From: Arabidopsis thaliana
Lineage: Eukaryota; Streptophyta; Magnoliopsida; Brassicales; Brassicaceae
NCBI RefSeq assembly: GCF_000001735.4
Contig: NC_003074.8
Location: 7,564,101 to 7,628,100, forward strand
Direction: 5' to 3'
Length of the DNA stretch: 64,000 nucleotides
The stretch's first letter is position 1, and every line of letters begins with the position of its first letter. This document shows positions 1,598 through 7,890 of this stretch, piece by piece. Under the pieces are notes generated by a model. That model did not search any database. It was given only the letters and a program-made list of their open reading frames with translations, and was not told the origin of the DNA. The position numbers and the translations under genes were made by a program.

Positions 1598-2794
1598 GTT
1601 AGATTGATATTCACTAAATAAGATGTTGGAGAAAAAATTATTTCTACTGAAAAGTAAAACAATCTATACATTTAAATTAGGGTCAATTTAACTTTTAGGC
1701 ACAATTTGGTAAGAATATTTTTTTTTTGTTTGACCTATAAATAGAATAGACTCGACAATCGATATTGTTTCGACGACAAAGGTTTTGCACTATAAACATC
1801 AAATTCACTTTGGAATGTGTCGTTCAACCTATCATTCCTCCCATTCTAGGAGGTGGTATCAACATCGTGATTCCTCCGAATGTAGATATAGACCTGAGTG
1901 TAACTACGGTGGACAAAGAAAACGCGTATTGGGATTTCAACTTGGTTTGATAAGACCGGGAAAAACCTTTGTCAAAGTTGTTATAGAAGTTGGAAAAGAA
2001 GTCATTCTAAACATACGCACAACGCCAAAAGACGCACGCTTCCCGAAGACTTACAAAAATAAGCCACCTACTTCGTATCTTGTGCTTCAACCAAAGAGAT
2101 CTCAACATTATCCGGATTTTTGGAAGATAAATTGGTCAAGTACTCGTCACCACCCCACACTGGCCGCAGAGACAGTTCTAGGTCAAGAGATACTGAAGCA
2201 ACAAATCCTCAATAGGCTGAGGTATCTTACATTTAATGCTGATGGAGAGTTAGTTGGTTTGTAATAACAAATGTTGCTCTTTCTCCTTTAAGAAACTTAA
2301 CGTATGTGTTGTTATCAGAGTTTGTGCTTTTCAATCAGAGCAACAAATATAAATGTGGTTCCAAGGTTATACATCGTGATTCCTCCGAATGTAGATATAG
2401 ACCTGAGTGTAACTACGGTGGACAAAGAAAACGTGTATTGTGACATGTCTGGTATATGTATTGAGTTAGATTGATATTCATTAAATAAGATGTTGGAGAA
2501 AAATTATTTCTACTAAAAAGTAAAACAATCTATACATTTAAATTAGGGTCAATTTAACTTTTAGGCGCAATTTGGTAAGAATAATTTTTCTTTGTTTGAC
2601 CTATAAATAGAATAGACTCGACAATAGATATTGTTCCGACGACAAAGGTTTTGCACCATAAACATCGAATTCAGTTTGGAATGTGTCGCTCAACCTATCA
2701 TTCCTCCCATTCTAGGAGGTGGTATCAACATCGTGATTCCTCCGAATGTAGATATAGACCTGAGTGTAACTACCGTGGACAAAGAAAACGCGTA
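1598..2794 (+). repeat. Duplicated promoter-plus-ORF unit (two ~330-bp copies and one fragment)
   Basis: Copy A (1598-1928) and copy B (2465-2794) match closely over about 330 bp with scattered substitutions and small indels. Each has a TATA-like TATAAATA (near 1736 in A and 2602 in B) followed by the start of an open frame. A third fragment (2371-2440) repeats the last ~70 bases of the unit. The bases after that fragment (2441-2465) also resemble 2911-2936, so the region grew by more than one local duplication. The units share the flanking AT-rich character and carry no terminal inverted repeats that I can see. Confidence 0.85.
1815..2264 (+). other. Unrecognised open reading frame, 149 codons, in copy A
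   Basis: An ATG at 1815, about 75 bases after a TATA-like box, opens a frame to a TAA at 2262-2264. The N-terminal third is Cys, His, Ser and Arg rich (MCRSTYHSSHSRRW) and looks like an out-of-frame reading. The C-terminal two thirds (residues ~45-149) look more protein-like: a Lys-rich segment with FVKVVIEVGKEVIL, then HYPDFWKINW and LRYLTFNADGELVG. A second frame over 1765-1950 also has protein-like composition (PPILGGGINIVIPPNVDIDL). I recognise no family in either. It could be a young orphan gene or the relic of something older; expression data would decide. Confidence 0.35.
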
Positions 2795-3293: not shown

Positions 3294-3365
3294 GGGGCGT
3301 TCCGAGAATTGAACTCGGGACCTCTCGCACCCTAAGCGAGAATCATACCACTAGACCAAACGCCC
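3294..3365 (-). tRNA. tRNA-Pro (anticodon AGG)
   Basis: The minus strand reads as a 72-nt tRNA. The acceptor stem GGGCGTT pairs with AACGCCC and a C discriminator follows. The D-arm carries the A box (TGGTCTAGTGG). The anticodon stem CTCGC/GCGAG holds the loop TTAGGGT, anticodon AGG, which decodes CCU/CCC proline codons once A34 becomes inosine. The T-arm carries the B box (GAGTTCAATTCTC). No intron. A T-run terminator follows on the minus strand. It is transcribed divergently from the BRCT gene 265 bp away. Confidence 0.97.
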
Positions 3366-3629: not shown

Positions 3630-6600
3630 ATGGCTAAATCTAACCAAAACTTTTCTCCGTATGAAGAGACCCAGCCGATTGATTCTAATCCACCTTCTTC
3701 TTCTGATTCTGGTAATTTTTACACTTACTAATCTCTTGTAGGGTTTATTCTTCATCAAAAGCTCCGATTTTTGCCTCTCATCGATCTGTTATATAAAAGA
3801 AATTTTGATTTTTCTGAGTTCTTGCTCTGTAATTTGAAGATTTTGGAAACTAATATGTGGTTTCTTAGTTACTCTTCTCTGTAGTTTACTATTACCTGAC
3901 CTAATTTGTTTTGAATCTTAGGCGAGGATAAAGATAGCTTGCTTGGGGATTGTGACACACAACCTGTTGATGACAATGCTTTGATTAATGATCAGTATAT
4001 GGAGACTCAGGTCATGGATACTGAATGTGATAATGAAGAATTTCTTCTTTGTAATGAAACTCAAGCAGTTGATTTGGGATTTGAAACCGGAGAAGAAGTA
4101 CTTGTAGAGGGGAAACAGTTACTTGAAGCTTCTGATGGTTTGGCTACTCAGGTTTTGGATCTTTGTGATGATGAAGTTGTTGTGGATAGTGATGATGATG
4201 TTACTGATGTGTTGGAGGGCAACAGTGATCTCTCTGATAGTGATGACTCGGGTAGTAAAGCGGAAACTGTGTTATCTAGTGAAGAGAATAGACAGGATGC
4301 TAATGAAAAGGTTAAATCAGCAGTTGTCTTTGATGCTTGGTCGAACGAACATGGAGTTTCTGGTGAGTTTCTTACCAATATTGCAGAGTTTGTTAATGAA
4401 TATTGAAATTTTAAGTTGGCTACTTAGGTTCAGTATAGATTTATCGGATCACAATGTCTTGACCTAATCTTAGTTGCTTACCAGCCTATAAGCATGAGAG
4501 ATATTCTTCGTTAATCAGTTGCTTACCAGCCTCTAAGTATGTTTTTGTATATAGTTTGTAACTCCATTGTTAATGTTCATGTAATCTTTTAGAAGATGGA
4601 GATCTTAATCTAATTAGGTAGTCATATTTTCCTGTGTTCTATTAACAAACCATTGGTAGTTGCAGACTTGCAGTTATTTTAAGACAATATCTGCCTTGCA
4701 TTCTTTTCAAGTTCCCTCTCTCATTTGCACTTTTCCAATGACCTTTTTTTCTTTTACCAGGAAAAAAGGTGGCTAGGTTCGCTTCAGTTCGTTCAGCAGC
4801 TTTTCGTGCTTCTGCTGTGGCAGCTCGTGTTGCAAACCAAAAATCTGCCAACACTGACTGTTCTACACTAATCAACTGTCATTCTTCTGGGAAAGGAACC
4901 ACACATAATTCTGGTCTAGAAAATAGTGTTGGGGAAGTAGGGAATCAGCAATCTCTTACCAGTTTATTTGTTGAAGAGAAAAAGGACTTAAGAACAGGAA
5001 AAAAAACAGCGAGGAAGCTTTTCGTAGAGGATTTCCCTGAAGAAAAATTTCATTCTACTGATTGCAATGTCGATCTGGGGAATTTGAGTTATATTGGCTC
5101 TCAAGAACCTGGTGAGGAATCCCAGGCCAGTGCTCTTAACTTGGTTGATAAGCTCATTAGTGAGTGCCGTCTAGAGTTTGATTTTGAAGTTCAAGCTGAC
5201 TATGGAAGGAAAACAGAAGATAAATCAAAATTTGTTCAGATTTTTAAAGGTCCACAAGAATTAGCAAAGAAGGTAAGTTACAAAAGTGGAGCTGTTGGAA
5301 ACAATATTTTCGACTGGGATGATAATCGTGAGGATGAAGGAGGGGGTGATATCTATCGTAGAAGAAAAGATGAATTCTTTGGCGTTGCAAGTAAAAGACG
5401 GGAATTTTCTAGCTTGCCTAGAGAACAGAAAAGAGAACTGATACCAGTTGCAGTGGATAAAAGATGGGCTCGTTCTGATTCCAAACTGTTGAAGCATAGT
5501 GTGACTAGGAGCCGAAAGAATATCCAGGGTGCTAAAAAGAATCTTGGCAAAGAGTTAGATGAAGTTCGTGAAGCGGCAGTTTTAGGGAATGATACACAAG
5601 TGGCTGCTGAAGCGATTGATGATCTGTGCTCTGGAGACCGTGGCAAATTTGATGGTGAGGCGAGTTGTCTTACAGGAAAGAAACTGTCACCAGAAGAAGA
5701 GAGAGGATTTTCTCCCGGTGGAGTCGTTACTAGACAATCCAAGGGAACTAAGAGGATTCAGGCTATGAGTAAAGATGAATTGTTGAAAAAAAGAATGAAG
5801 AAGGCTAGTCCTAGTCCTGCTAAAGCTTGCCGGACGAATATCGAAGGATCTTCAAATGGTGACCAGCTTAATAAAGAAGGTCCATGCTGCTGGAAGAGTA
5901 GGAAGGTCCAGACTGCTTCACGAGAAACTAAAAAGAATCTTGTTGACGAGTTTGATGAAGTTTCTCAGGAAAGTAATACAGAAATGTTTGATAGGCATGA
6001 AGAAGCAGAAGCAGGCCCTGATACACAAATGGCTGCTGAAGTGATGAATGCTCTGCACTCTGGGGACGGCAGGGAAATTGATCCTGAGCCAAATAATCTA
6101 ATAGGTAAGAAATTGTTATTGGAAGGAGGCATTTCTAGGTGTGGAGTCGTTACCAGAAAGTCCAAGAGGATCAAGGGGATTCAGGCTGTGGACAATGATG
6201 TTGAATCATTGAAACCAAAAAACAAGAAGGCTAGATCAATTCTTGCTAAGTCTTTTGAGAAGAATATGGATAGGTATTCAAAAAATGACAAAGTTGATAC
6301 GCCAGATGAAGCTGTTGCGTCAACCACAGAAAAGAGGCAAGGAGAATTATCAAACAAACATTGTATGTCTAAGTTACTTAAGCAATCACATAGAGGTGAA
6401 GCTGAGGTGTTGAATTATCCCAAGCGGAGAAGATCAGCTCGTATTTCACAAGATCAGGTTAATGAGGCTGGGAGGAGTTCAGATCCCGCGTTTGATACTC
6501 CAGCTAAGTCTAAGACGCCGTCAACAAATGTATCGCCTATATGCATGGGTGACGAGTATCATAGACTTTCTTGCAAAGATTCATTTACATCACACACTAC

Positions 6601-7890
6601 AAGGGAATTTCGTAGCTTAACCGTACCAGTAGCGGAACCTATCTCCGAGACAAAGAGTACTAGAAAGAGAAGAGATTTGGGTAGTATATGTGTCTTGTTC
6701 AGCCAGCATCTTGATGAAGATGTGACCAAGCATCAGAAGAAGGTATAGTTGGGTTTCTAACTGTAACTTTAGTTACCTTCGATCATGTGACCTTATTCCT
6801 TGCTTTTTCTTTTACAATTGGTAGTGAATTTTCAGTTTTGCATTAACCAAGTCTTCTAGACAAAAGTAAACCTCTTAACAATCTGGCATATGATATGTTT
6901 AACAGATTTTGGCAAGGTTTGATATCTCGGAAGCTTCCTCCATGAAGGAGGCAACACACTTCATAGCTGATAACTTTACGCGCACAAGGAACATGCTAGA
7001 GGCAATCGCTTCAGGCAAGCCAGTGGTCACAACACAATGGCTTGAAAGCATCGATCAAGTAAACATATACGTTGATGAGGATATGTATATACTCAGAGAT
7101 TCAAAGAAGGAGAAGGAGTTCTGTTTCAACATGGGGGTTTCTTTGGCTCGTGCACGCCAGTTTCCGCTACTACAGGTATCTAATACTCTTTTGGTTTCAA
7201 TTCTTTTTTTACCTCGTTTATTCTCCCTTTTCGGCTCATTATATTTACATATTTCAGGGAAGAAGAGTTTTTATCACTCCAAATACAAAGCCTGCTTTAA
7301 ACACAATCACTACTTTGGTTAAAGCAGTTCATGGACTGGTAATCATTTCTTCACCTTTTTACACTTTCATGTGCATGTTTTCAAAACTTTTTCTCCCCGA
7401 AACTGATCCATAATGAAAACAAATGCCAGCCTGTAGAAAGACTCGGAAGATCTTCCCTAAGCGAAGATAAGGTCCCAGAGAATCTTCTGGTCTTATCATG
7501 TGAAGAGGATCGCGCTATCTGTATACCCTTTCTGGAAAGAGGTGAGTTTTATAGTTTGGTCTATATAACTTCTGCTTTTGTATGTGGTAGATTTCACGGG
7601 GAAATCACAGTTTTTCTTTTCCTTCTTCTCAGGGGCCGAGGTATATAGCTCGGAGTTACTACTAAATGGGATAGTTACCCAAAGGCTTGAGTATGAGAGG
7701 TGGGTATTGTTATTAGACAATAAATTCTTATATTTGTCGAACAAAGCTTTGTCTCATCTCATTCATGGCTTCTTACTTGGGAATCTTGAACTGTGTTAGG
7801 TACCGTCTCTTCACAGACCATGTGAGAAGAACGCGGTCAACGATATGGATCAAAGACGGGAAAGGTAAGTTCCAACGTCGTAGCGGGTAA
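3630..7890 (+). CDS. Tandem-BRCT DNA damage response protein, TQ-repeat N-terminus
   Basis: Eight exons (3630-3711, 3922-4362, 4761-6742, 6906-7175, 7258-7338, 7430-7541, 7633-7699, 7800-7890) splice in frame at GT-AG borders to 1041 residues. Residues 1-110 are acidic and hold five TQ-x-hydrophobic-D repeats (Thr14, 40, 56, 74, 103). Residues ~80-145 are strongly acidic. The large exon 3 encodes a Lys/Arg/Ser-rich, probably disordered middle with two ~130-residue internal repeats, each with a GVVTR-SK-K-IQA core and another DTQ-AAE site. Two BRCT domains lie at about 815-900 (HFIADNFTRTRNMLEAIA, QWLES) and 925-1015. Tandem BRCTs bind phosphoserine peptides at DNA damage sites. Recalled as At3g21480. 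A 5-codon upstream frame overlaps the start codon. Nuclear action is inferred. Confidence 0.93.

What the first reader, a model, noticed from the sequence alone, without database searches (positions are those of the whole stretch)
3669..4160. Five TQ-x-hydrophobic-D repeats at the N-terminus of the tandem-BRCT protein
TQPID, TQPVD, TQVMD, TQAVD and TQVLD occur at Thr14, 40, 56, 74 and 103, within an acidic region, and the protein ends in tandem BRCT domains. TQ sites are ATM/ATR targets. In animal MDC1, TQ-x-hydrophobic repeats plus C-terminal tandem BRCTs recruit RNF8 and fold the damage platform on phospho-H2A.X. The shared layout suggests an MDC1-like scaffold in plants, possibly oligomerising or binding FHA partners. 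I recall reports of plant BRCT proteins that read phospho-H2A.X but cannot say whether this locus is one.
Basis: partly seen in the sequence, partly recalled or inferred. Interest (0 to 1): 0.72.

Follow-up and report, generated by a model that had tools for sequence, protein, structure and literature searches.

The report
Arabidopsis BCP4 TQ-motif array (known)
The five repeats are real and belong to Arabidopsis BCP4, a DNA-damage scaffold already published as the plant counterpart of animal MDC1 with these very motifs described; whether and by what the motifs are read is still an open question.

Summary
The window lies on chromosome 3 of an assembly that fits Arabidopsis thaliana; the gene, eight exons at 3630-7890, encodes 1041 aa. 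TQPID, TQPVD, TQVMD, TQAVD and TQVLD start at Thr14, 40, 56, 74 and 103; none of 20,000 shuffles reached five in 100 aa. The gene is BCP4/AT3G21480. Lorkovic et al. 2024 (PMC11014961) already report it as the plant functional counterpart of MDC1 and describe the TQx-phi motifs; their TQx-phi cloning primers fall at 3663-3681 and 4142-4160. They showed gamma-H2A.X binding, and NBS1 binding elsewhere in the protein. So the finding is a rediscovery. Open is what the array does: it was tested only with NBS1, using E. coli protein. My additions: no FHA domain in BCP4; Asp at +4 in five of five motifs, which with aliphatic +3 favours an FHA reader; Arabidopsis NBS1's FHA keeps four pThr contacts; the paralogue BCP3 has lost the Gln at all five aligned sites but keeps TEAID and TELVD; BCP1's C-terminal BRCT pair is nearer SLF1/TOPBP1 than PTIP BRCT5-6.

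The parts
3630..7890 (+). BCP4 / AT3G21480 gene, coding exons 3630-3711, 3922-4362, 4761-6742, 6906-7175, 7258-7338, 7430-7541, 7633-7699, 7800-7890; 1041 aa
   Evidence: splice sites and translation; published full-length primers, 5' tails trimmed, match 3630-3652 and 7871-7890; locus name from PMC9791218
3669..3683 (+). TQxphiD motif 1, Thr14, TQPID (exon 1)
3957..3971 (+). TQxphiD motif 2, Thr40, TQPVD (exon 2)
4005..4019 (+). TQxphiD motif 3, Thr56, TQVMD
4059..4073 (+). TQxphiD motif 4, Thr74, TQAVD
4146..4160 (+). TQxphiD motif 5, Thr103, TQVLD
3663..4160 (+). stretch spanned by the published primers for the BCP4 'TQx-phi' fragment (primers at 3663-3681 and 4142-4160; the paper cloned from cDNA)
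   Evidence: primer match to Table 1 of PMC11014961
5099..5125 (+). SQSQ motif, Ser288 and Ser295
   Evidence: residue map; motif named in PMC11014961
5153..5167 (+). NBS1-binding residues Leu306 and Cys310 (published mutants)
   Evidence: L306 and C310 match the paper's numbering
5312..5320 (+). DWD motif, residues 359-361
   Evidence: named in PMC11014961
5531..5854 (+). first copy of an internal duplication (residues 432-539) with DTQ motif Thr453
   Evidence: BLASTP within BCP4: 53 of 120 aligned columns identical, E 3e-18; coordinates
5927..6280 (+). second copy of the internal duplication (residues 564-681) with DTQ motif Thr596
6647..7803 (+). C-terminal tandem BRCT (Pfam matches at residues 804-897 and 922-1013, six exons); gamma-H2A.X pocket residues Q823, R861, T862, R863, N864, E997
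   Evidence: Pfam, PDB matches, residue numbers agree with those published

Best explanation
The locus is Arabidopsis BCP4, a chromatin scaffold of the DNA double-strand-break response. Its C-terminal BRCT pair docks on phosphorylated H2A.X (published). Its middle region binds NBS1 without phosphorylation (published). The N-terminal acidic, probably disordered stretch with five TQ-x-aliphatic-D motifs most likely acts as a multivalent ATM/ATR phospho-docking array (inferred). Once the threonines are phosphorylated, a partner binds pThr with an aliphatic +3 and an acidic +4 residue. An FHA-domain protein is the likeliest class, and NBS1's own FHA is a candidate that the published test did not exclude (inferred). 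Analogous TQxF arrays in animal MDC1 recruit RNF8 and Pellino through FHA domains.
For: Shown here: gene model and motifs; tandem BRCT related to PTIP and MDC1; published numbering of L306, C310, Q823, R861-N864 and E997 matches this protein, 8 of 8. Published (PMC11014961; Results parts 1-3 of 4, Discussion and Methods read): zeocin sensitivity of bcp4, gamma-H2A.X peptide binding and H2A.X-dependent foci, NBS1 binding and TQx-phi motifs in varying number across plants. For an FHA reader: +3 is I, V, M, V, L and +4 is D in 5 of 5 motifs, with E/D at -1 in 4 of 5. PMC11884936 (passages) calls +3 a key FHA specificity position and describes Pellino FHA contacts with pT-1 Glu and pT+4 Asp. Arabidopsis NBS1 FHA aligns to human nibrin with the residues at human R28, S42, R43 and K73 kept, 4 of 4; PMC8079451 names these as pThr contacts in its model (passages). 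FHA domains exist in this genome: 14 matches.
Against: No phosphorylation of these threonines was found: the locus name occurs in the main text of one library paper; BRCT does not occur in the main text of the one plant X-ray phosphoproteome I opened, where 4% of 254 responsive sites were SQ/TQ (supplements not readable). The only binding test of the array that I saw, with NBS1, was negative. Pellino FHA domains select an aromatic +3, which BCP4 lacks in 5 of 5. Plants lack a clear RNF8; the paper's nearest protein, STUbL2, has a BRCT instead of an FHA. The motifs are absent from most multicellular green algae and from BCP3, yet BCP3/XIP also binds gamma-H2A.X, so the array is not needed for that function.
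Confidence: 0.62

Rival explanations
1. The phosphorylated array is read by a BRCT pair, chiefly that of BCP1, which joins gamma-H2A.X foci without binding gamma-H2A.X itself. BCP4 would then recruit BCP1 through pTQxphi.
For: BCP1 foci depend on H2A.X although its BRCT pairs do not bind the phospho-H2A.X peptide; the authors propose BCP1 as an effector and state that its interaction with BCP4 is undetermined. BCP1's C-terminal pair matches SLF1 (6.5e-15) and TOPBP1 (about 2e-12) far better than PTIP BRCT5-6 (1.1e-3). TOPBP1 BRCT7/8 binds a pThr peptide, and BCP1 has Arg and Lys where the alignment puts, by my count, TOPBP1 Arg1280 and Lys1317.
Against: TOPBP1 BRCT7/8 and NBS1 BRCT favour a hydrophobic +4 residue, and SLF1's second pocket takes Rad18 Ile446, four residues after pS442; BCP4 has Asp at +4 in 5 of 5. 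BRCT domains usually prefer pSer.
Confidence: 0.17
2. The motifs are phospho-independent short linear motifs (T-x-x-aliphatic-D); the TQ is incidental.
For: In my alignment BCP3 has lost Gln at all five positions but keeps Thr at four and T-x-x-aliphatic-D at two, TEAID and TELVD; 1 of 3000 and 7 of 3000 shuffles of BCP3 did as well in the same procedure.
Against: Five of five in BCP4 have Gln. Without the alignment, 189 of 20,000 shuffles of the BCP3 stretch hold two or more T-x-x-aliphatic-D. The bacterially made fragment did not bind NBS1. Slow decay after duplication explains BCP3 as well.
Confidence: 0.12
3. The TQ cluster is an ATM/ATR multi-site phosphorylation region that adds charge or regulates turnover, without a specific reader.
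For: Acidic stretch (28 D/E, 3 K/R in residues 1-110); copy number varies from three to ten between species.
Against: Fixed +3 aliphatic and +4 Asp in 5 of 5 motifs go beyond the SQ/TQ kinase site.
Confidence: 0.15

Closest known systems
Arabidopsis BCP4 (AT3G21480), proposed AtMDC1; Lorkovic et al. 2024 PMC11014961, Vladejic et al. 2022 PMC9791218
   Same: It is this gene: of 16 BCP4 primers in Table 1 of PMC11014961 I tried 10, and 10 of 10 match the window once each; 8 of 8 residue numbers agree; the five motifs lie within the published TQx-phi fragment.
   Different: Nothing in identity. The text I read names the motif TQx-phi; figures are not held, so I cannot say whether the +4 Asp is shown there.
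Animal MDC1
   Same: C-terminal tandem BRCT binding gamma-H2A.X; TQ-x-hydrophobic repeats; scaffold.
   Different: No FHA domain; no SDTD or PST repeats (paper); +3 is I, V, M, V, L, not Phe; NBS1 bound without phosphorylation; BRCT pair scores higher with PTIP BRCT5-6 than with MDC1.
BCP3 / XIP (AT4G03130)
   Same: Paralogue; SQ, DWD, DTQ and BRCT-start regions align; binds gamma-H2A.X (published).
   Different: No TQ in its N-terminal stretch; in my 570-residue partial model one isolated TQRVM at 277 and one NTQIAAE where BCP4 has two DTQ motifs. Its SQ/DWD fragment does not bind NBS1 (paper).
PTIP/PAXIP1 BRCT5-6 and fission yeast Brc1
   Same: First and sixth of 11 PDB matches of the BRCT pair (1.7e-30 and 2.8e-13).
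   Different: PTIP has six BRCT domains and glutamine stretches that BCP4 lacks (paper).

Membership tests
BCP4 (plant BCP3/4 clade) | locus identity: published primers and residue numbers | tested here: met
   10 of 10 primers tried (of 16 listed) found, each once; 8 of 8 published residues agree: 306, 310, 823, 861, 862, 863, 864, 997
BCP4 (plant BCP3/4 clade) | C-terminal tandem BRCT, SQSQ, DWD, DTQ and TQxphi motifs | tested here: met
MDC1 | N-terminal FHA domain (in all 119 metazoan MDC1 analysed by PMC11014961) | tested here: not met
   Pfam scan at E up to 1 lists three BRCT families and no FHA
MDC1 | C-terminal tandem BRCT related to MDC1 | tested here: met
   four MDC1 chains at E 1.2e-19 to 1.9e-19, but PTIP at 1.7e-30
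MDC1 | TQxF repeats (Phe at +3) | tested here: not met
   +3 is I, V, M, V, L; TQ-x-hydrophobic in the wider sense is met
MDC1 | BRCT pair binds phospho-H2A.X | not testable with these tools
   published as positive (PMC11014961)
MDC1 | SDTD and PST repeats | not tested
   reported absent in BCP3 and BCP4 by PMC11014961
MDC1 | ATM-dependent phosphorylation of the TQ repeats and recruitment of an FHA ubiquitin ligase | not testable with these tools
   no report seen

The most novel reading that the evidence does not exclude
The TQxphiD array is the phosphorylation-gated partner site of the plant double-strand-break platform, and published work missed its partner because it used bacterially made protein. 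Phosphorylated BCP4 would bind either the FHA domain of NBS1, giving NBS1 a second, damage-gated contact besides the published constitutive one, or the SLF1/TOPBP1-like BRCT pair of BCP1.
Probability: 0.35. Interest if true: 0.5.

Novelty: already known. Interest (0 to 1): 0.25.

Why it matters
Gene, layout, gamma-H2A.X reading, MDC1 analogy and the TQ motifs are in print, so the finding adds little by itself. The remaining gap is useful: papers opened here describe 53BP1 as missing from plants and Chk2 and RNF8 as animal-specific, and nobody seems to have shown what, if anything, reads the TQ array of the plant damage platform. Searches of the held open-access library listed no paper on that question beyond PMC11014961; PMC10850495 (barley) mentions BCP4 once and was not opened.

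Tried and rejected
Self-oligomerisation through an own FHA domain: rejected for lack of an FHA domain. The array as a low-complexity or recent DNA repeat: not supported by the shuffles or the mixed codons. A relative of the N-terminal 174 residues among solved structures: none at E up to 10. A second copy of the N-terminal region in the genome: residues 1-383 gave four matches at E up to 10, three in this gene and one in BCP3 for residues 282-366 (only the best candidates are scored).

Search for human MDC1 Thr4 (FHA-mediated dimerisation; I recall its context as TQAID, from no call): five papers listed, none holding TQAID. I rest no claim on it.

An own cross-species alignment was not made: the sequence collections on offer are of prokaryotes, phages, viruses, plasmids and metagenomes, and the window's genome has no relatives here. 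Conservation statements are the paper's. Structure prediction was not run: its stated rule asks for proteins read letter for letter from the DNA, and the BRCT pair is spliced from six exons.

Caveats: BCP1's comparison with PTIP covers PTIP BRCT5-6 only, the one PTIP chain among the hits. BCP1-N best matches TOPBP1 (1e-13), but PTIP's other BRCTs may have no solved structure to match. TOPBP1 residue numbers in the alignment are my assignment: the aligned chain has R, R and K at the spacing of Arg1280, Arg1314 and Lys1317. BCP1 and NBS1 exon joins were made by eye and may be off at the junctions.

Full report
Identity. A search for BRCT domains in the window's own genome placed the window at 7,564,101-7,628,100 of contig C3 of a 119.66 Mb, seven-contig assembly, which fits Arabidopsis thaliana (my reading). 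Splicing the gene gives eight coding exons, 3630 to 7890, and 1041 aa, with seven GT-AG introns (stop 7888-7890). Table 1 of PMC11014961 lists 16 BCP4 primers; I tried ten, tails trimmed, and ten match the window once each; eight of eight published residues agree in letter and number. PMC9791218 gives BCP4 as AT3G21480 (passages).

Observation. TQ-x-[VILMF]-D occurs in the protein only at 14, 40, 56, 74 and 103; none of 20,000 whole-protein shuffles and none of 20,000 shuffles of residues 1-110 reached five in 100 aa, while plain TQ reached five in 1 of 20,000 whole-protein shuffles. TQ occurs nine times and SQ five times. Residue -1 is E, D, E, E, A; +2 is P, P, V, A, V; +3 is I, V, M, V, L; +4 is D five times; spacings are 26, 16, 18 and 29. 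With the Asp content of residues 1-110 (15 of 110), five of five at +4 has a probability near 5e-5, a post-hoc figure. Thr and Gln codons are mixed, so the array is not a fresh DNA repeat.

What is already known. PMC11014961 (Results parts 1-3 of 4, Discussion and Methods read) reports that BCP4 binds gamma-H2A.X through its BRCT pair, forms H2A.X-dependent foci, binds NBS1 through a region with Leu306 and Cys310, and that bcp4 is sensitive to zeocin. PMC9791218 saw no increased sensitivity of its bcp4-1 to the genotoxins it tried, a conflict the 2024 paper notes. The 2024 paper describes three to ten TQx-phi motifs by species, compares them with MDC1 TQxF, and calls their role unclear. Its primers for the TQx-phi fragment lie at 3663-3681 and 4142-4160. 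The finding is therefore a rediscovery from raw sequence of a published feature.

Domains. Pfam lists only BRCT families, at residues 804-897 and 922-1013, and no FHA. The BRCT pair has 11 PDB matches at E up to 1: PTIP BRCT5-6 first (1.7e-30), then four MDC1 chains (1.2e-19 to 1.9e-19) and fission yeast Brc1 (2.8e-13). By sequence it sits nearer PTIP than MDC1; the paper's trees group it with both. The N-terminal 174 residues match no solved structure at E up to 10.

What reads the array. The published negative with NBS1 used GST fragments co-expressed in or purified from E. coli, where plant ATM/ATR is absent; it does not test pThr-dependent binding. Arabidopsis NBS1 FHA aligns to human nibrin (4.3e-7) with the residues at human R28, S42, R43 and K73 kept, pThr contacts in the model of PMC8079451 (passages). 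In PMC11884936 (passages) the Pellino FHA binds MDC1 pTQXF, +3 is called a key determinant, and a +4 Asp present in one of the four human motifs is said likely to add affinity. BCP4 has that Asp in five of five. Against this, Pellino selects an aromatic +3, which BCP4 lacks. I still favour an FHA reader with aliphatic +3 preference. The rival is BCP1. Its C-terminal BRCT pair gave 41 PDB matches at E up to 1, led by SLF1 (6.5e-15) and TOPBP1 (2.3e-12), with PTIP at 1.1e-3 and MDC1 at about 0.01. It carries Arg and Lys where the alignment puts, by my count of spacings, the TOPBP1 residues Arg1280 and Lys1317 named in PMC8079451. Against BCP1, TOPBP1-type pockets favour a hydrophobic +4, which BCP4 lacks.

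Paralogue. BCP3 (locus L020) has no TQ in its N-terminal stretch: the first of six SQ/TQ sites in my 570-residue partial model is at 152, and one of them, TQRVM at 277, is a lone TQ-x-hydrophobic without +4 Asp. In a global alignment with BCP4 the five sites read TEDFA, TEAID, TPFQV, TELVD and a gap: Thr kept at four, Gln at none, T-x-x-aliphatic-D at two; MAFFT pairs the same four Thr. Shuffled BCP3 kept four or more Thr in 1 of 3000 and two or more such motifs in 7 of 3000; without alignment, two or more arise in 189 of 20,000. This agrees with the paper's view that BCP3 lost the motifs after duplication, and suggests that Gln went first. The alignment at Thr14 is weak.

Phosphorylation. I found none reported. 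AT3G21480 occurs in the main text of one library paper. The plant X-ray phosphoproteome PMC6900162 (passages) reports 4% SQ/TQ among 254 responsive sites and does not use the term BRCT in its main text; its supplements were not readable here. PMC9792525 reports no phosphopeptide of XIP/BCP3 (passages).

Verdict. Observation confirmed; interpretation right in its main line and already in print; the role of the array remains an open, easily tested question.

Noticed in passing
window 5531-5854 and 5927-6280: BCP4 carries an internal duplication of about 110-120 residues, each copy with a DTQ[VM]AAE motif (53 of 120 columns identical, E 3e-18); my partial BCP3 has one such motif, NTQIAAE. The passages of PMC11014961 on DTQ that I read do not mention two copies.
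   Followed up: partly
locus L021 and L024 (BCP1, C4:933000-942500): BCP1's C-terminal BRCT pair is nearer SLF1 and TOPBP1 than PTIP BRCT5-6 in the PDB search, and its N-terminal pair is nearest TOPBP1. This sits uneasily with its published reading as a PTIP counterpart; PMC9791218 notes an older TOPBP1 suggestion.
   Followed up: partly
window 3294-3365: tRNA-Pro (anticodon AGG) gene on the minus strand, about 265 bases upstream of the BCP4 start codon.
   Followed up: no
window 1633-1932 and 2499-2798: Direct repeat of 300 bases at 96% identity, with a 73-base copy of its end at 2371-2443 (97%), upstream of BCP4; looks like a local duplication.
   Followed up: no
PMC6900162, table passage: AT2G45460, an SMAD/FHA-domain protein, is listed with an SQ-containing phosphopeptide (site S21) in a table of the X-ray study; a possible FHA player in plant damage signalling.
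   Followed up: no
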